A stretch of 33,925 nucleotides of DNA from NCBI GenBank assembly GCA_902806175.1, contig CADCVQ010000030.1, forward strand, positions 1 through 33,925, given 5' to 3'. The position numbers and the translations under genes are program-made. This DNA is from an uncultured Solirubrobacteraceae bacterium (GTDB lineage: Bacteria; Actinomycetota; Thermoleophilia; Solirubrobacterales; Solirubrobacteraceae). The notes beneath the pieces were generated by a model. The model worked only from the letters and a program-made list of their open reading frames with translations, made no database searches and was not told where the DNA came from. Shown here in pieces: positions 1,692-13,959 of the stretch (its first letter is position 1; each line of letters opens with the position of its first letter).

Positions 1692-3089
1692 TCAGGCCGG
1701 CAGCTCGAGCGCGAACGTCGTGCGGCCCCTGCCCGGATCGATCTCGAGCGAGCCATCCATCCGCTCGGCGAGCTCGCGCGCGATCGCCAGGCCCAGGCCC
1801 GAGCCCTGCGCGTCGTCGGAGGTGAAGAAGGGCTCGAAGACGCGCTGCGCCGCGGCGTCGGAGATGCCGGGGCCGTCATCGCTGACCGCCAGGCGCACCG
1901 ATCCGTTGTCGCGCGCTGCCGAGACGACGACAGCGGTTCCCGCGGGCGTGTGCGTGAGGGCGTTGTCGATCAGGATGCGCAGCACCTGCGCGACGCGCTC
2001 GGGATCGCAGACGGCATCGATCCGGTCGCCGCCGAGGCGCAGCTCGAGCTTGGAGTCGTGCTTGTCCAGCGCGGGCGCGAACTCGGCGCTGACGGCGCGC
2101 GTGAGCTTGCCGAGGTCGGTCTCTTCGCGGCGCAGCTCCAGCGAGCCCGCCTCCAGCCGCGAGAGGTCGAGCAGGTCGGTCGCGAGCTTGCCGAGGCGCT
2201 CGACCTGCTCGCGCACGGTCGCGACGAACTGGCGCCGGGTCTCGTCGTCGAGCTCCTCGTCCTCCATGAGCTCCAGGAAGCCGCCGATCGAGAAGATCGG
2301 CGTGCGCAGCTCGTGCGATGCCGTTGCGATGAAGCGCCGCCGCGCGCTCTCGAGCTGGGCGAGCTGGCGCTGCATGTCGTCGAGCGCGGCCGCGAGCTGG
2401 CCGAGCTCGTCGTCCTTGCCGGCGGGGAAGACCGCCGTGAAGTCGCCCGAGGCCACCTGGTCGGCGCCGCGCTCGAGCACCCGCACCCGCCGCGCGATCC
2501 GGCGCGACACGACAAAGCCGACGACCAGCGCGAGCAGCAGCCCGAGCGCGCCCGCGGTCAGGATCTGGCGGCGGATCAGCGCGACGTTGCCCCGCACGTC
2601 GGCCAGCGGCGCCGAGAAGACGGCGACGCGGCTGACGGTCCCCGCGTCGCGGATCGGCACGGCGACCTGGCCGAGCTCGCCCTCGCGCGAGGGCTCCTCG
2701 CCGAGGGCGGTGCGGCCGGTCCGCGCGGCGACGTCGGCGACCTCGAAGCGTAGGTCCGTGATGCGGTTGTCGGTGTAGGAGTCCGAGAAGATCGACAGCT
2801 GCAGCCCTTCGGTGCCGTCGCCGACGGCCAGCAGCGTCACGCGCGCGTTGGTGCGGTCCGAGATCGACGAGACGAGGTTGTTGATCTCGTCGTCGCTGCC
2901 GTTGCTGCGTACGAGCCGGGTGATCTGCGGCGTGAAGACGAGCGCGGTCTCCGTGAGCGCCTTCATCTTCTGGTCGCGCAGCGAGGACTGCAGCTGCGGC
3001 GTGACGTAGAACAGGACCGCGAGGATCGCGACGAGCGTGACCGCGAAGGAGAGGATCGTCAGCTGCGTGCGCAGCGAGCCCCAGCGCAT
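1692..3089 (-). CDS. Membrane sensor histidine kinase (HAMP-HisKA-HATPase)
   Basis: 465 residues from ATG 3087-3089. Transmembrane helix 1 (about residues 9-29) is followed by a roughly 145-residue extracytoplasmic sensor region and helix 2 (about 176-195). A HAMP linker then leads to the dimerisation/phosphoacceptor helix with His259 in SHELRTP, and a HATPase domain with N-box (DNALTHT), DGPGI and GSGLGLAI motifs. It should autophosphorylate and pass phosphate to the OmpR-type regulator encoded 38 bp upstream on the same strand. A TTG 18 nt further upstream is an alternative start, but the ATG has an AGAAGG ribosome site about 8 nt ahead. The signal is unknown. The operon with an otsA-like gene suggests osmotic or envelope stress, which is inference only. 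Confidence 0.92.
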   Translation of the reverse strand: MRWGSLRTQLTILSFAVTLVAILAVLFYVTPQLQSSLRDQKMKALTETALVFTPQITRLVRSNGSDDEINNLVSSISDRTNARVTLLAVGDGTEGLQLSIFSDSYTDNRITDLRFEVADVAARTGRTALGEEPSREGELGQVAVPIRDAGTVSRVAVFSAPLADVRGNVALIRRQILTAGALGLLLALVVGFVVSRRIARRVRVLERGADQVASGDFTAVFPAGKDDELGQLAAALDDMQRQLAQLESARRRFIATASHELRTPIFSIGGFLELMEDEELDDETRRQFVATVREQVERLGKLATDLLDLSRLEAGSLELRREETDLGKLTRAVSAEFAPALDKHDSKLELRLGGDRIDAVCDPERVAQVLRILIDNALTHTPAGTAVVVSAARDNGSVRLAVSDDGPGISDAAAQRVFEPFFTSDDAQGSGLGLAIARELAERMDGSLEIDPGRGRTTFALELPA

Positions 3090-3127: not shown

Positions 3128-3847
3128 TCAGCTCTCGTCGCGGAACCGGTAGCCCACGCCACGCACGGTGAAGAGGTACTCCGGGTGCTTGGCGTCGAGC
3201 TCGAGCTTCTCGCGCAGGTGGCGGATGTGGACGTCGATCGTGCGCGGGTCGCGGTAGGCGGCGTCGCCCCAGATCCGTGTCAGCAGCATCTCGCGCGTGA
3301 AGACGCGGCCTGGCGCCGTCGCGAGCGCGGCGAGGATCTCGAACTCGACGAACGTCGTCTGCGCCGGCGCGCCGCGCACCCGGACGGCGCGCTTGTCGAA
3401 GTCGATCCGCAGGCCCGCGACCTCGAGCGGCCCGTCCGACGCGTCGCGCTCCTCGCGCCCGTCCTGCGGACGCATGTCGGCGCGGCGCAGCGCGGCCTTC
3501 ACCCGGCTGCGGAACTCGCGCATCGAGAACGGCTTGGTGATGTAGTCGTCGGCGCCGATCTCGAGCCCGAGGACCTTGTCGATCTCCTCCGCGCGCGCCG
3601 TCAGCATGATGATCGGCACCGTGCTGCGCGCACGGATCCGGCGGCAGACCTCGAGGCCGTCGAGCTTGGGCAGCATGAGGTCCAGCACGACGAGGTCGTA
3701 GGAGCCCTCGGAGAACCGATCCAGCGCCGCACGGCCGTCGGTGGCCTGCACGACGTCGTAGCCTTCCTTGCGCAGCGGATAGGACAGCAGCGTCTGGATT
3801 GCGTGCTCGTCATCGACGAGAAGGATGCGAGGAGCACGATCCACCAT
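3128..3847 (-). CDS. OmpR/PhoB-family response regulator
   Basis: 239 residues: a receiver domain (1-120) with the acidic pair Asp12-Asp13, phosphoacceptor Asp56 in VLDLMLP, conserved Thr in LTA and Lys in TKPF, then a winged-helix DNA-binding domain ending in RGVGYRF. I chose ATG 3845-3847 because the receiver beta-1 strand begins five residues later; a longer frame would add 13 unsupported residues. It is the first gene of a minus-strand run with the sensor kinase (38 bp gap) and the GT20 gene. The gap to the divergent M28-like gene is only 22 bp, so the two promoters must overlap. Phosphorylation would promote dimerisation and operator binding; targets are not evident. Confidence 0.93.
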   Translation of the reverse strand: MVDRAPRILLVDDEHAIQTLLSYPLRKEGYDVVQATDGRAALDRFSEGSYDLVVLDLMLPKLDGLEVCRRIRARSTVPIIMLTARAEEIDKVLGLEIGADDYITKPFSMREFRSRVKAALRRADMRPQDGREERDASDGPLEVAGLRIDFDKRAVRVRGAPAQTTFVEFEILAALATAPGRVFTREMLLTRIWGDAAYRDPRTIDVHIRHLREKLELDAKHPEYLFTVRGVGYRFRDES

Positions 3848-3869: not shown

Positions 3870-5654
3870 ATGATCGATCCGCGCATTTACCGGGCTGCGC
3901 TGATTCCCGTCCTGTTTGCGTTCGTGCTGCTCGCGTTCTCGCTCGAGAACCGGCCCCAGCCGATGCGCACGCCGATCGCCCCCGACGCCTTCCAGGGCGA
4001 CCGGGCCTTCGAGAGCGCCTACGAATCCGGCGAGGGGCTGTCAGAGCGCTTCGCGCAGCGCCGGCCGGGCTCGGACGGTGACAACCGGCTCGCCGGGGAG
4101 GTCGCGGCACAGATGCGCGACGCCGGCTTCCGCGTGCGCACGGTGCAGCGCGCGGGCGACACGATCGACGGCCGCCAGAGGCTGCGCACGGTCATCGCGC
4201 GGCGGCCGGGCACGATCGACGAGCAGATCGTCGTCGTCGCGCACCGCGACGCAGCGGGCACGCGCGCCGAGGCCGAGCTCTCCGGGACGGCCGCGCTGCT
4301 GGAGCTGACGCGCGTCTTCGGCGCCCCGCGCCAGGCGCGCCACACGCTCACGCTCGTCTCGACGAGCGGTGGCAGCGGTGGCTCGGCGGGCGCCGCCGAG
4401 CTCGCGCGCGAGCTCGGCGGGCTGCCCGTCGGCGCCGTCGTCGTGCTCGGCGACCTGACGTCGCGCAACGTCCGCGCGCCACTTGTCACGCCGTGGTCAA
4501 ACGCGCTCGGTGGTTCACCGCAACGACTGCGCGCAACCGTTCAGGAGGCGGTGCGCCTGGAGACCGGGTCGGGCTCCGGAGCGCCGCGGGCGCTGAGCCA
4601 GTTCGCGCGCTTCGCGATGCCCGCGACGTTCGGCGAGCAGGGCGCGCTGCTGGCGCGCGGGCTGCCCGCCGTGCTGCTGTCGATCGGCGGCGACAGCCCG
4701 CCGCCGGCGAACGCGCCGATCTCGCGCGAGCGCCTCGAGACCTTCGGCCGCGCGGCGCTGCGCTCGGTGACGGCGCTCGACAGCGCTCCCGCCGCGCGCC
4801 CGATCACGACCGAGGCGTCCAGCCGCGACCTGCTCACGAGCCGCAAGATCGTTCCGGCGTGGGCGATCAGGCTCTTCACGGGGGCGCTGCTGCTGACGGT
4901 GCTCATCACCGCGGTGGACGCGCTCGCGGCGCTGCGGCGCCGGCGCGAGCCGATCGTCATCTGGCTTGGGTGGACGCTGACTGCGGCGCTGCCGTTTCTG
5001 CTGGCGGCCGTGTTCGCGCTGCTGCTCAACGCCGTCGGTTTGCTCGACGCGCCGGGCGCCCCGGTGCCGGCGCAGGCGCTGGCGGCCGAGCTGCCGGCGC
5101 TGCTCGCCGTGCTGCTCGTCTTCGCGCTCGGCTGGGTCTGGTTGCGTCGCGCCGCGCTGCGTCTGCTGCGCGGCGGCGCGGCCGACCGCTCGCAACCCGG
5201 CGCGCAGGTCGCGATCGTTCTCGTCGCGACGGCGGTCGCGAGCGTCATGTGGATCACCAACCCGTATGCCGCCGCGCTGCTGATCCCCGCACTGCACATC
5301 TGGCTGTTTGCGGTCGGGCCCGACCTGCCGATGGGGCGCGCGCTGCGCCTGGTGGTCGTGGCGCTCGGTGTCGTGCCGGCCGCTGCTGTCGCGCTCGCGC
5401 TCGCCCGCTCGCTCGACCTCGGTGTGATCGACGCGACGTGGCAGCTCGTGCTGCTGACGGCCGGTGGACACATCTCGCCGCTCAGCGTGCTGCTGTGGAG
5501 CGTCGCGGCCGGCTGCGCCGTCAGCGCGCTGCTTGCCGCCGCGCACGCCGCCGGCCCCGCCGGCGATGACGACGTCGCGATCACCGTCCGCGGGCCCAGG
5601 ACGTACGCCGGACCCGGTTCGCTCGGCGGAACAGAGTCGGCTCTGCGGCGATGA
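3870..5654 (+). CDS. Polytopic membrane protein with degenerate M28 peptidase-like domain
   Basis: 594 residues. One N-terminal transmembrane helix (10-24) precedes an extracytoplasmic domain (about 40-310) that follows the M28 zinc-aminopeptidase pattern, then about seven more hydrophobic helices (about 325-575). The first zinc motif survives as AHRD (His125, Asp127). The segment that normally reads GA-D-D-N-x-SG is instead AEAELSG, so the metal-bridging Asp is replaced by Ala135. The double Glu of the catalytic loop is replaced by Ser/Gly in VSTSGGSGGS. I therefore expect no peptidase activity; the domain may bind peptides or act as a scaffold. The layout recalls FXNA/GAA1-type membrane M28 relatives. 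Its stop overlaps the start of the sortase gene (ATGA), so the two are translationally coupled. ATG 3870 is chosen because the membrane helix begins just after it; a start 45 nt upstream would read into the divergent regulator. Confidence 0.75.
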   Translation: MIDPRIYRAALIPVLFAFVLLAFSLENRPQPMRTPIAPDAFQGDRAFESAYESGEGLSERFAQRRPGSDGDNRLAGEVAAQMRDAGFRVRTVQRAGDTIDGRQRLRTVIARRPGTIDEQIVVVAHRDAAGTRAEAELSGTAALLELTRVFGAPRQARHTLTLVSTSGGSGGSAGAAELARELGGLPVGAVVVLGDLTSRNVRAPLVTPWSNALGGSPQRLRATVQEAVRLETGSGSGAPRALSQFARFAMPATFGEQGALLARGLPAVLLSIGGDSPPPANAPISRERLETFGRAALRSVTALDSAPAARPITTEASSRDLLTSRKIVPAWAIRLFTGALLLTVLITAVDALAALRRRREPIVIWLGWTLTAALPFLLAAVFALLLNAVGLLDAPGAPVPAQALAAELPALLAVLLVFALGWVWLRRAALRLLRGGAADRSQPGAQVAIVLVATAVASVMWITNPYAAALLIPALHIWLFAVGPDLPMGRALRLVVVALGVVPAAAVALALARSLDLGVIDATWQLVLLTAGGHISPLSVLLWSVAAGCAVSALLAAAHAAGPAGDDDVAITVRGPRTYAGPGSLGGTESALRR

Positions 5655-6343
5655 CGGGCGCGACGCGGCGCGCGCTGCGCGCCCTCTCCACCGTGCTGAT
5701 CGTCGCCGGCGTGCTCATGCTCGCCGATGCGTTGCTGACGCTCCTGTGGCAGGAGCCGGTGTCGGCGATCTACGCGACGATCGTGCAGGGACAGCTCGGC
5801 GGCGACCTCGAGAAGCTCGAGACGCGCAGGCCGACGACGCTCGACCTCGCCGCCCTGCAGAGGCTCGCCACCGAGCGCCGGCGGATGGCGTTTCTCGCGC
5901 GCCGGCTGCGCGCCGACAGCGACGCGGGCGCCGCCGCCGGACGCATCCTGATCGACAAGATCGACGTCGACTTCGTGCTCGTCAACGGGACCGACGGCAA
6001 CGACCTGCGCAGGGGGCCCGGCATCTACGACGACGTCCCGTTCCCGGGGGCGCCGGGCACGACCGCGATCGCCGGCCATCGCACGACGTTCGCCGCGCCG
6101 TTTAGGCGGATCGATCGCCTGCGCCCAGACGACCGCGTCATCGTCGAGATGCCCTACGGCCGCTTCACCTACGAGGTCGAGAAGACGCGCATCGTCGCGC
6201 CGACCGAGGTCTCGGTCATCAAGCGCGTGAAGTTCGACCGGCTCGTGCTGTCGGCGTGTCACCCGCTCTACAGCGCGGCGCAGCGGATCGTCGTCTTCGC
6301 GCGCCTCGTCGCCGCGCAGGCGCGCGGCGCTGCGCGGCTGTAA
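5651..6343 (+). CDS. Class E-like sortase
   Basis: 230 residues. A membrane anchor (about 12-32) is followed by the sortase beta-barrel with the complete catalytic triad: His143 in AGHRTTF, Cys203 in LSACHP and Arg212 in AAQRIVV. The Cys-His-Pro context and N-terminal anchor match class E sortases of high-GC Gram-positives, which cleave an LAxTG/LPxTG-type signal and attach the protein to peptidoglycan or join pilin subunits. No protein in this window carries an obvious sorting signal, so the substrate is elsewhere or unconventional. ATG 5651 overlaps the upstream stop by 4 nt, so the M28-like membrane protein and the sortase should be made together. Confidence 0.88.
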   Translation: MTGATRRALRALSTVLIVAGVLMLADALLTLLWQEPVSAIYATIVQGQLGGDLEKLETRRPTTLDLAALQRLATERRRMAFLARRLRADSDAGAAAGRILIDKIDVDFVLVNGTDGNDLRRGPGIYDDVPFPGAPGTTAIAGHRTTFAAPFRRIDRLRPDDRVIVEMPYGRFTYEVEKTRIVAPTEVSVIKRVKFDRLVLSACHPLYSAAQRIVVFARLVAAQARGAARL

Positions 6344-6394: not shown

Positions 6395-6664
6395 ATGAGC
6401 CTTTCACTCAAGCGCGAGGATGCGCCGCTCGATACCTCCCGCGAGATGCGAATGCAACAGATCAAGCAGCGCGTGCAGAGCGCGGACTACAGCGTCGACC
6501 CGGCGCTGGTCGCAGAGGCCATGCTGCGCCACGCCGTCAGTCACAGGCGGTGCTGGAAGCCGCGTGCCGACTGGGCGACGCCGCCGGACAGCAACTCCAC
6601 GCCCGGCGCCGCGTCGTTCACGCTGCCGATCCAGGTCAGCGGCGCGGCGGACTCGGCCGCGTAG
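6395..6664 (+). CDS. FlgM-like anti-sigma factor homologue
   Basis: 89 residues from ATG 6395, which has GGAG 4 nt upstream. Residues about 18-50 carry the FlgM core pattern: Arg-x-x-(Met/Ile)-x-x-Ile-Lys-x-x-Val, then a Tyr-x-Val-Asp-Pro turn and an Ala-x-Ala-Met-Leu helix. FlgM proteins bind and block sigma-28 (FliA) until the flagellar hook is complete. No flagellar or sigma-factor gene is nearby, so the partner is unknown. The open frame does not end where family members normally end; it runs another 40 codons, antisense over the 3' end of thiL (124 nt overlap). The extra tail is probably not important. The gene is small, so this is a motif-level call. Confidence 0.55.
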
Positions 6665-10096: not shown

Positions 10097-11347
10097 ATGC
10101 TCTTGCGCGCGCTGCCCGGCCGCATCGCCGTGGCGGCCGACGAGGCCGTCGCCGACGCGTGGCGGGCGCTGTGGATCTCGCGGCTGCTCGTGTGGGCTGC
10201 GGCGATCGGCGCGGTCGCGCTGTTCGGCCTGTCGGCGCGCGCGGGGGACTTCGATCCCGCCGGGCTGACGACGCCCTACGGCGCGACCGGCGACGCGCTC
10301 GCCGCGCCGCTCGGGCGCTGGGACTCGGTCTGGTTCATGGCGATCGCGTCAGACGGCTACGGCGGCGGCGCGCGCGAGGCGTTCTTTCCGCTCTATCCGC
10401 TGCTCGTCCGCGGCGCGGGTGCGCCGTTGGGGTCGACCCTGATCGGCGGCGCGCTGGCGTCGACGGCGCTGCTCTTCGTGGCGCTCGTCCTGCTGCACCG
10501 GCTCGTCGCGCTGGATCACGACCGCGCGGTCGCGCGCAACGCCGTCCTCGTCACGGCGCTGTTTCCGATGTCGTTCTTCTTCTCGGCGGTCTACAGCGAG
10601 TCGCTCTTTCTCAGTCTCTCGGTCGGCGCGATCTATGCAGCGCGGCGCGAACGCTGGGCGTGGGCGGGGGCGCTCGGGCTGCTCGCCGCCACGACGCGCA
10701 GCGCGGGCGTGCTGCTGCTCATCCCGCTGGCGATGATCTACCTCTGGGATGTCGCGCGCCCGAGCCTGCGCACGATGCGCCCCCTGCGCGCCGACGCGCT
10801 GTGGTTGGTGCTCGTGCCGCTCGGCCTGGCCGCCTACTGCGGATTTCTTGCGCTCGACGGCCACGACCCGCTGGCGCCGTTCAACGCGCAGGAGGTCTGG
10901 TTTCGCTCGTTCGCAGGACCCTTCGCCGGCGCGTGGGACGGACTCGTCGCCGCGGTGCAGGGAGCGCGCCAACTGCTCTCGGGCGCGCGCGAGCCGGTCT
11001 ACTTCACCGCCGCCGGCGGGGATCCGTTCGTCGTCGCGCGGCACAACATCGAGCTGCTCGTATGGCTCGTGCTGGCGCTCGTCGCCGTGGCCGGCGTGCT
11101 GCGGCGGCTGCCCGCGGCCTACGGCGCCTACGTCGTGGCGGCGCTCGCGCTGCCGCTCTCCTATCCCGTCGGGCCGCAGCCGCTCATGTCGCTGCCGCGG
11201 TTTCTGGCGGTGCTCTTTCCGCTGGCGATCTGGCTCGCCGTCTGGATGACCGGCCGTGTCGCGCGCGAGCGCGTCGTCGTCGCCGTGTTCGCCGTCGCCC
11301 TCGCGGTCTATACGGGCATCTTCGCCACGTGGCACTGGGTCGCGTAG
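10097..11347 (+). CDS. PIG-V-like (GT76-type) membrane mannosyltransferase
   Basis: 416 residues, almost entirely hydrophobic, with about nine to ten transmembrane segments. The first periplasmic loop has an acidic RWDSVWF motif followed by FFPLYPLLVR. Downstream is the segment FPMSFFFSAVYSESLFL and then TRSAGVLLL. This arrangement is typical of PIG-V/GT76 polyprenyl-phosphate-mannose-dependent transferases, where the Asp in the first loop is the likely catalytic residue. In actinobacteria such enzymes mannosylate lipids or secreted proteins; the acceptor here is unknown. The stop lies inside the overlapping start of the HAD gene, so the two are coupled. Confidence 0.8.
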   Translation: MLLRALPGRIAVAADEAVADAWRALWISRLLVWAAAIGAVALFGLSARAGDFDPAGLTTPYGATGDALAAPLGRWDSVWFMAIASDGYGGGAREAFFPLYPLLVRGAGAPLGSTLIGGALASTALLFVALVLLHRLVALDHDRAVARNAVLVTALFPMSFFFSAVYSESLFLSLSVGAIYAARRERWAWAGALGLLAATTRSAGVLLLIPLAMIYLWDVARPSLRTMRPLRADALWLVLVPLGLAAYCGFLALDGHDPLAPFNAQEVWFRSFAGPFAGAWDGLVAAVQGARQLLSGAREPVYFTAAGGDPFVVARHNIELLVWLVLALVAVAGVLRRLPAAYGAYVVAALALPLSYPVGPQPLMSLPRFLAVLFPLAIWLAVWMTGRVARERVVVAVFAVALAVYTGIFATWHWVA

Positions 11348-12045: not shown

Positions 12046-12948
12046 ATGTCCGATGCACCGCCCCCGCCGGAGTCCCCGCCCAGCGCGCCTGCTGCTCCCG
12101 CACCCGCGCAGCCCGCGGGCGCGCCGCCACTGCTCGGTCGCGCCGGGTGGCCGCCGTGGCTGGCGGCGCTCGCGTTCGTGGCGGGCTTCGGGATCACGAT
12201 CGTCGCCGGCCTCTTCGTCTTCGTCGCGGCGACGGCGGTCGGCGTCTCCGAGGACGCGCCCGGCATCGGTATCGGCCTGACGCTCGCGCAGAACGTCGCG
12301 CTCGTCGGCGCGGCCTTCTTCTTCGCGTCGATGGGGCGCGGCCGGGCGGCGGCGGCGGACTTCGGCCTGCGCCGGCCGCGATTCTGGGCAAGCGTCGGAC
12401 TGCTCGTCGCGGTCTGGATCGGCTTTCTCCTGCTGAGCGCCGCGTGGGCCACCGCGTTCTCGCTCGACGAGCCGCAGGAGCTGCCCGACGAGCTCGGCGC
12501 AAACGGCCCGCTGCTCAACGCGCTCGCGGTCGTCGTGCTCGTCACGGTCATCGCACCGCTGGGCGAAGAGCTGTTCTTCCGGGGCTTCTTCTTCGGAGCT
12601 GTGCGCAACTGGAAGGGGCCATGGCCCGCGGCGCTGATCACCGGCATCGTCTTCGGGGGCATCCACGCCGGCTCGTCGCCGGTCGGTTACCTCGTACCGC
12701 TGATGATCCTGGGCGCCGCCCTGTGCCTGCTCTACGAGTGGACCGGCTCGTTGTATCCGCCGATCGCGCTGCACGCGCTGAACAACTCGATCGCGCTCGG
12801 CGCGAACCTCGACTGGGACTGGCAGATCCCGGCGATGATGGTCGGCTCGACCGCGGCGGCGCTGCTGTGCGCCTGGCTGCTCGCGCGCGCTGTCGGCGAC
12901 GCGCGCCGCGTGCCGGCCGCGAGTTCGCCGGCGCCCGGCGCCGCCTGA
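12046..12948 (+). CDS. CPBP-family intramembrane metalloprotease
   Basis: 300 residues. A disordered Pro/Ala-rich cytoplasmic start (1-35) is followed by about eight membrane segments. The three CPBP/Abi motifs are intact: GEELFFRG with Glu174-Glu175 and Arg179, FGGIHAG with His207, and HALNNS with a second His near 244. These are the metal and catalytic residues of Rce1-like proteases. In bacteria such proteins process membrane peptides, including bacteriocin precursors, or modulate anti-sigma factors, but no substrate gene is visible. It lies 12 bp after the HAD gene and probably has its own start site. Confidence 0.9.
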   Translation: MSDAPPPPESPPSAPAAPAPAQPAGAPPLLGRAGWPPWLAALAFVAGFGITIVAGLFVFVAATAVGVSEDAPGIGIGLTLAQNVALVGAAFFFASMGRGRAAAADFGLRRPRFWASVGLLVAVWIGFLLLSAAWATAFSLDEPQELPDELGANGPLLNALAVVVLVTVIAPLGEELFFRGFFFGAVRNWKGPWPAALITGIVFGGIHAGSSPVGYLVPLMILGAALCLLYEWTGSLYPPIALHALNNSIALGANLDWDWQIPAMMVGSTAAALLCAWLLARAVGDARRVPAASSPAPGAA

Positions 12949-12975
12949 ACGGAGTCGTCCGCCTGCGCCACGTGG

Positions 12976-12981
12976 CATAGT
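12976..12981 (+). promoter_or_regulatory. Candidate -10 box (CATAGT) of the L,D-transpeptidase gene
   Basis: CATAGT matches TATAAT at four of six positions and ends 9 nt before ATG 12991, the same spacing as other leaderless candidates here. It is weaker because the first T is absent. Confidence 0.28.
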
Positions 12982-12990
12982 GCCGCCTCG

Positions 12991-13959
12991 ATGCGTCGCG
13001 CCGCCGTCATGTTCTCCCTCTTGGTGGCGGCGGGCGCACCGACCGCGGCCGCGCGCGCCCAGGCACCTGCCGCGCCGCCGCCGCCGGCCGACGCGCAGAT
13101 GACGCTGAAGGTCGAGCGCGTCGGCGGAGCGCGCGCCACCGTCCTCAGCGGGTCGAGCGTTCGGGTCCGCGGGACGCTGCCCGTGTTCGCTGCGGGCGAG
13201 ACGGTGACGGTGCGGTTCTACATCGCCGGCAAGAAGCGCTTCGCGCGCCGCGTCGCGCTGCAGCCGCAGGCGGACGGAACGGGCGCGATCGCGCTCTCCT
13301 ACAGGCCGCGGCGGGTCGGCACGATGAAGATCACGGCGACGCATCCCGCGTCGCCGGCGATCAACGTCTTCATCGCGAAGGCGCCCGCGGTCGACGTCAT
13401 CCCGCGCCGCGTCACGCCCAGCAGCGGCGCAGCATCGATCCGTGCGCTGCAGCGCCGGCTGCGCCGGCTGGGCTATGTGACCGGGGCGCGCGGCTCATTC
13501 GACGGGCGCACGGCGCGCGCTGTCCTCGCGTTTCGCAAGGTCTCGGGGATGGCGCGCACGACGAGCGCCTCGACGGGCGTCATGCGGGCGATCGCGCGCG
13601 GCAAGGGCCGCTTCGTGATCCGCTTTCCCAAGCACGGCCGCCACATCGAGGCCGACCTCTCGCGCCAGGTCATCGCCCTGATCCAGGCTGGTCGCGTGCG
13701 GCGCATCTACCCGGTCTCGTCGGGTGCCCCCAGCACGCCGACGGTGCAGGGCTCCTTCAAGGTCTACTCCAAGACGCCCGGCACGAACGCCAAGGGCATG
13801 GTCCACTCCGCGTACTTCATCCGCGGCTACGCGACGCATGGCTATCCGTCGGTGCCGGTCTACCCGGCCAGCCACGGCTGCCTGCGAGTGCCGATCCCCG
13901 ACGCGCTCAGCCTCTTTCGGTGGATCAAGATCGGGACCCCGGTCGACGTCTACCCGTAG
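12991..13959 (+). CDS. L,D-transpeptidase with peptidoglycan-binding domain (YkuD)
   Basis: 322 residues. A signal peptide (1-24, cleavage likely near ARA-QA) is followed by an Ig-like beta region (about 38-135). A type 1 peptidoglycan-binding domain follows (about 147-190, with LQRRLRRLGY and a TARAV helix), then a YkuD catalytic domain (about 207-321). The active site is complete: His283 in THGY and the SHGC box with His295 and Cys297, followed by Arg299. The enzyme forms 3-3 meso-diaminopimelate cross-links or attaches proteins to peptidoglycan outside the membrane and is carbapenem- rather than penicillin-sensitive. With the PBP1 gene 3 kb away, the region encodes both cross-linking chemistries. 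The last 10 bp overlap the convergent small membrane protein gene. Confidence 0.93.
   Translation: MRRAAVMFSLLVAAGAPTAAARAQAPAAPPPPADAQMTLKVERVGGARATVLSGSSVRVRGTLPVFAAGETVTVRFYIAGKKRFARRVALQPQADGTGAIALSYRPRRVGTMKITATHPASPAINVFIAKAPAVDVIPRRVTPSSGAASIRALQRRLRRLGYVTGARGSFDGRTARAVLAFRKVSGMARTTSASTGVMRAIARGKGRFVIRFPKHGRHIEADLSRQVIALIQAGRVRRIYPVSSGAPSTPTVQGSFKVYSKTPGTNAKGMVHSAYFIRGYATHGYPSVPVYPASHGCLRVPIPDALSLFRWIKIGTPVDVYP

What the first reader, a model, noticed from the sequence alone, without database searches (positions are those of the whole stretch)
3870..6343. Catalytically degenerate M28 peptidase domain in a polytopic membrane protein, coupled to a class E sortase
The M28-like domain keeps the first metal motif (His125, Asp127) but has Ala at the metal-bridging Asp position and Ser/Gly in place of the catalytic Glu pair. 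It is followed by about seven membrane helices. Its stop overlaps the start of an intact sortase (His143, Cys203, Arg212). Translational coupling of a pseudo-peptidase with a transpeptidase suggests a presentation or assembly module, in which the dead domain might hold or orient sortase substrates. I know of no described system with this pairing.
Basis: partly seen in the sequence, partly recalled or inferred. Interest (0 to 1): 0.62.

Follow-up and report, generated by a model that had tools for sequence, protein, structure and literature searches.

The report
GPAA1-like dead peptidase paired with sortase
An actinobacterium carries a membrane protein whose peptidase domain has lost its catalytic residues and whose predicted shape resembles GPAA1, a helper subunit of the eukaryotic machine that fixes proteins to GPI anchors; the next, overlapping gene is a sortase, the bacterial enzyme that fixes proteins to the cell surface.

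Summary
Window 3870-5654 encodes a 594-aa protein: one membrane helix, an M28-fold domain lacking the bridging Asp (Ala135), both Glu positions (Gly168/Ser169) and the last zinc His, then seven more helices. Its stop overlaps (ATGA) the start of an intact sortase (His143, Cys203, Arg212). The family is single-copy, matches 133 of 149 genomes of the class, is not found full-length elsewhere in the phylum sample, and is degenerate in every member aligned. The sortase is directly downstream in three families (f1, f7, f10; 28 of 71 sampled genomes having both genes), but the M28-like protein also persists in 29 sampled genomes with no detectable sortase. The pairing is recurrent, not obligatory.

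New here: for the full-length AlphaFold model (pLDDT 90.7) the five best PDB matches are all GPAA1 of the GPI transamidase, ahead of every soluble M28 enzyme; the membrane part alone again ranks GPAA1 first by structural alignment (Z 10-12; next 7), though Foldseek alone finds nothing there. Sequence does not place it in the Gaa1 family. Best explanation: a non-catalytic membrane platform that works like GPAA1 and, where co-encoded, serves a sortase. A physical complex is untested.

The parts
3870..5654 (+). M28-like / 8-TM protein (594 aa), single-copy class-wide family
   Evidence: ORF; homologues in 40 of 41 relatives and 133 of 149 class genomes
3879..3938 (+). N-terminal membrane helix (residues 4-23)
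   Evidence: AlphaFold model m03bb1259593d; N-in by positive-inside counts
3975..4799 (+). Extracytoplasmic M28-fold domain (residues 36-310), catalytically degenerate: His125 kept, bridging Asp -> Ala135, Glu pair -> Gly168/Ser169, last His absent
   Evidence: fold match Z 29.7; alignments; Pfam M28 20.1 bits
4857..5543 (+). Seven membrane helices (residues 330-558); best structural match is the GPAA1 membrane region
   Evidence: models; VIA-align Z 11.8/11.4/10.6/10.2 to four GPAA1 entries, next 7.1
5589..5651 (+). Conserved cytosolic C-terminal tail RGPRTYAGPGSLGGTESALRR (residues 574-594), disordered in the model, best-conserved 21-residue stretch of the protein
   Evidence: found on no other protein in the genomes searched; conserved at protein level, not DNA level
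5651..5654 (+). ATGA overlap of the M28-like stop and the sortase start
   Evidence: sequence; junctions in other families also overlap or abut
5651..6343 (+). Sortase (230 aa; His143, Cys203, Arg212; N-terminal membrane helix); the only PF04203 sortase found in this genome
   Evidence: PF04203 102.7 bits; own-genome search; residues
1692..3847 (-). Divergent two-component system (histidine kinase 1692-3089, OmpR-type regulator 3128-3847), conserved neighbour
   Evidence: neighbourhoods

Best explanation
The protein is a non-catalytic integral membrane protein built like GPAA1: one helix, an extracytoplasmic M28-fold domain without a working zinc site, and seven further helices, with both ends inside. 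It most likely acts as a membrane platform that binds a substrate or lipid-linked acceptor rather than cutting peptides. Where the sortase gene is in its operon (this genome, most of its family, parts of two other families), the two proteins are most likely made by coupled translation and act on the same membrane event: the dead domain and membrane part hold substrate or acceptor while the sortase's Cys203 does the transpeptidation, as GPAA1 is thought to assist the Cys transamidase PIGK. Shown: gene order, overlap, degeneracy, distribution, and the predicted fold with its match to GPAA1. Inferred: binding role, physical contact with sortase, identity of substrate. The protein must also have a sortase-independent role, since it persists without sortase.
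For: Degeneracy throughout the class. AlphaFold pLDDT 90.7, pTM 0.88. Foldseek over the PDB: ranks 1-5 all GPAA1, E 1.4e-12 to 7.0e-12, TM-score up to 0.61, about 640 alignment columns, ahead of all soluble M28 chains. Membrane part alone: GPAA1 is the top four entries by VIA-align, Z 10.2-11.8, 186-224 of 261 residues, onto GPAA1's own membrane region; next entry 7.1. Eight helices in both (PMC9098846). GPAA1 lacks the zinc motif; its authors suggest substrate recruitment, and a sortase-like ping-pong for PIGK. Pairing with sortase in f1 (21 of 24 sampled f1 genomes having both genes), f7 (6 of 13) and f10 (G053), and in 55 of 77 named loci, with overlapping or abutting starts. The genome encodes an LPLTG-anchored candidate substrate.
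Against: The M28-like protein is present in 29 sampled genomes without any PF04203 sortase, and family f9 has sortases without the full-length protein. No sequence match to Gaa1 PF04114. Foldseek alone finds no significant match for the membrane part (best E 0.47), and Z 10-12 is below the level (about 13) at which helical bundles are safely distinct (note). No test of physical interaction was possible.
Confidence: 0.45

Rival explanations
1. The protein is a general envelope protein tied to the neighbouring two-component system (a scaffold, sensor or stress-response component). Sortase sits beside it because both are envelope genes regulated together, without physical contact.
For: Its usual neighbours in the window's order are the regulator/kinase pair, thiL, a class A PBP and often an HtrA-like protease, with or without sortase. 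It persists without sortase. In family f5 the gene abuts a GT2 glycosyltransferase in an apparent operon instead.
Against: Sortase and not some other envelope gene recurs immediately downstream, with overlapping or abutting starts, in three families.
Confidence: 0.35
2. The likeness to GPAA1 reflects only that both are M28 domains attached to a membrane bundle. Other M28-plus-helices proteins (for example the ERMP1/PFF1 type, recalled from memory, no solved structure in the match list) would match as well, and the membrane parts are unrelated.
For: The M28 domain dominates the full-length score; the membrane part alone is not significant by Foldseek; no Gaa1 sequence signal. GPAA1 is the only M28 + 8-helix chain seen among the matches.
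Against: Searched without its M28 domain, the membrane part still ranks four GPAA1 entries first, onto GPAA1's membrane region.
Confidence: 0.3
3. The domain still binds metal or catalyses something (peptidase, cyclase) with shifted ligands.
For: His125 (in most of the window's family) and Asp195 are kept; family f7 homologues keep three of five ligand positions including the DNASG Asp, and one homologue (L104) has an EE nearby.
Against: No homologue aligned has the Glu pair together with the last His; His125 is replaced in 19 of 57 rows. GPAA1 mutants in comparable residues keep function.
Confidence: 0.07

Closest known systems
GPAA1/Gaa1, non-catalytic subunit of the eukaryotic GPI transamidase (PDB 7w72, 7wld, 8imx, 8imy, 9ub7)
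   Same: Order of parts: one helix, M28-fold domain outside the cytosol, seven helices; eight helices in all; zinc site degenerate; best structural match for the full protein and for the membrane part; works beside a Cys transpeptidase.
   Different: No Gaa1 HMM match; about 14% identity; partner gene is a sortase (not related to PIGK); no PIGT/PIGS/PIGU counterparts shown; a conserved C-terminal tail in one order; also found without a transpeptidase.
Transferrin receptor 1 (catalytically dead M28-fold ectodomain)
   Same: Best sequence-profile match in the PDB (E 4.9e-8); same replaced positions (HRD/QRD, Glu pair lost).
   Different: Single membrane helix, extra domains, animal receptor.
Active M28 aminopeptidases (BSAP/YwaD 6hc7, AM-1 2ek8, AAP 1amp)
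   Same: Domain fold, Z about 29.
   Different: Intact zinc site, soluble, no membrane bundle.
Class E sortases of actinobacteria (e.g. Streptomyces SrtE)
   Same: Neighbouring protein has the sortase domain and triad; class E is its best subfamily model.
   Different: Below the class E model's cut-off; encoded with the M28-like protein, a pairing that I found no paper describing.

Membership tests
Peptidase family M28 (PF04389), active members | M28 fold | tested here: met
   Z 29.7 to 6hc7, 245 residues, 2.3 A
Peptidase family M28 (PF04389), active members | Pfam gathering score | tested here: not met
   20.1 bits against 21.3 for the window protein
Peptidase family M28 (PF04389), active members | Five zinc ligands and catalytic Glu | tested here: not met
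   Bridging Asp, Glu pair and last His absent
Gaa1/GPAA1 (PF04114) | Sequence match to the family model | tested here: not met
   No match in 57 members at E 10; none over the cut-off in 21 genomes
Gaa1/GPAA1 (PF04114) | M28-like domain plus 8 membrane helices in the same order and topology | tested here: met
   Model, topology, full-length match, PMC9098846
Gaa1/GPAA1 (PF04114) | Same membrane-domain fold | tested here: inconclusive
   Top four VIA entries, Z 10.2-11.8; Foldseek not significant
Gaa1/GPAA1 (PF04114) | Part of a complex with a Cys transamidase | not testable with these tools
   Only genetic linkage to a sortase is shown
Sortase (PF04203) | Sortase domain with His, Cys, Arg | tested here: met
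   102.7 bits; His143, Cys203, Arg212
Class E sortase (NF033747) | Score above the curated cut-off | tested here: not met
   109.7 bits against 160, although it is the best subfamily

The most novel reading that the evidence does not exclude
Bacteria of this class have a two-part analogue (or remote homologue) of the GPI transamidase core: a GPAA1-like dead-M28/8-helix subunit that physically serves a sortase, attaching surface proteins to a wall or lipid-linked acceptor. GPAA1's membrane fold, reported without known relatives, would then have a prokaryotic counterpart.
Probability: 0.25. Interest if true: 0.85.

Novelty: new variant of a known kind. Interest (0 to 1): 0.62.

Why it matters
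The role of GPAA1 in the GPI transamidase is debated and its membrane fold had no recognised relative (PMC9098846). A bacterial protein with the same layout, encoded with a transpeptidase, would give a simpler two-gene system in which to ask what a dead M28 domain does for protein anchoring, and bears on where the eukaryotic machine came from. It would also be a conserved genetic partner for a sortase.

Tried and rejected
Reading the pair as a one-off: rejected, it recurs in three families. Reading the pair as obligatory: rejected. My first reading that linkage was restricted to one family plus one case was corrected. The tail as a general targeting tag: rejected, it is found only on this protein; as a DNA/RNA element: rejected, third positions are free; as a sortase marker: rejected, present in G007 and others with no sortase. 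A substitute transamidase in sortase-less genomes: C13/PIGK-like peptidase in 1 of 22, exosortase in 0 of 22 genomes searched. Gaa1 by sequence: no match. One origin for all linked sortases: not resolved; some rows were fragmentary. Literature on prokaryotic GPAA1, on sortase with GPI transamidase, and on M28 with sortase: nothing relevant in the library; subscription papers are not covered. A search for sortase accessory factors recalled from memory (SafA) found no usable paper. The first genome-contig query failed for lack of conserved stretches.

Full report
What was checked. The named residues are as stated, with one refinement: the Glu pair of active M28 enzymes corresponds to Gly168/Ser169, by the profile alignment with the transferrin receptor and by homologues that keep the DNASG motif. 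Pfam sees M28 only just below its cut-off.

Degeneracy. In the window's order the bridging Asp is Ala or another residue, the Glu pair is gone and the last His is gone. His125 itself varies (38 of 57). In other families (f6, f7, and G150 of f10), His/Asn-Arg-Asp and the DNASG Asp are often kept, and f7 also keeps the second Asp, but the Glu pair and last His are still missing. So loss of catalysis looks ancestral in the class and the rest of the site decayed later; no homologue with an intact site was seen.

Distribution. A profile of 26 homologues finds a match in 133 of 149 class genomes, nearly always one full-length copy; some matches, those of family f9 among them, are to the M28 domain alone. 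In a sample of 296 genomes of the phylum, strong hits outside the class cover only the M28 domain. The named relatives are Solirubrobacterales such as Conexibacter, Solirubrobacter, Svornostia and Paraconexibacter. In the window's order the gene nearly always sits divergent from an OmpR-type regulator and histidine kinase and convergent with thiL; L115 (G159) is an exception for the two-component system.

Linkage to sortase. A sortase lies directly downstream on the same strand in 21 sampled f1 genomes, six f7 genomes and one f10 genome, and in 55 of 77 named loci with complete context (that set was found partly through the conserved tail, so it is biased towards the window's family). Starts overlap or abut in f7 as well, e.g. 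TGATG and TAATG. Among 100 sampled genomes with the M28-like gene, 71 have any PF04203 sortase and 28 have it adjacent; naive chance expectation is about 0.03 genomes, though relatives are not independent. On the M28 tree the label changes 5 times against 17.6 for shuffled labels (made before the f7 pairs were known). The other 29 genomes have the gene but no sortase found, including all sampled f4 and most f5 (some of these assemblies are incomplete), and f9 has sortases without the full-length gene. So the second refuting condition is half met: the linkage is recurrent, either old or repeatedly gained, but not universal. Sortase trees do not settle one origin or several.

Structure. The full-length model is confident (pLDDT 90.7, pTM 0.88). 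Its five best PDB matches are all GPAA1. VIA-align gives Z 29.7 for the M28 domain with soluble aminopeptidases. Because that domain could drive the ranking, the membrane part (residues 312-572) was modelled alone (pLDDT 91.8). Foldseek then finds nothing significant, but VIA-align places four GPAA1 entries first, Z 10.2-11.8 over 186-224 residues onto GPAA1's membrane region, against 7.1 for the next entry. The paper on the human complex reports eight helices in GPAA1, no zinc motif and no known relative of its membrane domain, suggests substrate recruitment, and likens PIGK's chemistry to sortase. I take kinship of layout as well supported, homology of the membrane part as likely but unproven. 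By sequence it is not a Gaa1 member.

The tail. Residues 574-594 are the best-conserved 21-residue stretch (mean majority 0.84 against 0.58 for the M28 domain), predicted cytosolic and disordered, found on no other protein, conserved at the protein level, and independent of sortase. It suggests a cytosolic partner common to much of the window's order.

How it may work. Shown: gene order, overlap, predicted fold, degeneracy. Inferred: the M28 fold and membrane bundle bind a substrate or lipid-linked acceptor and, where paired, bring it to the sortase. In f5 the gene instead abuts a GT2 glycosyltransferase, followed by a GT4 glycosyltransferase and LPG_synthase_TM and DUF2079 membrane-protein genes, which would fit a general role in surface assembly, but this is speculation. 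The own genome encodes an LPLTG protein as a likely sortase substrate.

Verdict. The unreported point is the GPAA1-like architecture beside a bacterial transpeptidase.

Noticed in passing
window 5589-5651: C-terminal tail RGPxxYAGPGSLGGTxSALRR is the most conserved part of the protein in the window's order, disordered, predicted cytosolic, found on no other protein.
   Followed up: yes
window 6395-6664: FlgM-like anti-sigma-28 ORF (PF04316, 27.6 bits, cut-off 25) just downstream of the sortase, overlapping the end of thiL on the other strand; a weaker one (21 bits) at the same place in L114.
   Followed up: partly
window 10097-11347: PIG-V-like mannosyltransferase (PF04188, 48 bits), a conserved neighbour in the order; a GPI-pathway-like family near the GPAA1-like gene, perhaps coincidence.
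   Followed up: partly
L100:9743-15894: In family f5 the M28-like gene abuts a GT2 glycosyltransferase, followed by GT4, a methyltransferase-like, LPG_synthase_TM and DUF2079 genes.
   Followed up: partly
L107:4431-5591 and the same gene cluster in many loci: An HtrA-like protease (trypsin + PDZ) often lies next to the two-component system; it is missing in the window itself.
   Followed up: no
window 12178-13959: Rce1-like CAAX protease and a YkuD L,D-transpeptidase, both conserved neighbours.
   Followed up: no
L132, L149, L153, L162: Public MAG records titled Bifidobacterium breve that carry this Solirubrobacterales locus; the organism names look wrong.
   Followed up: no
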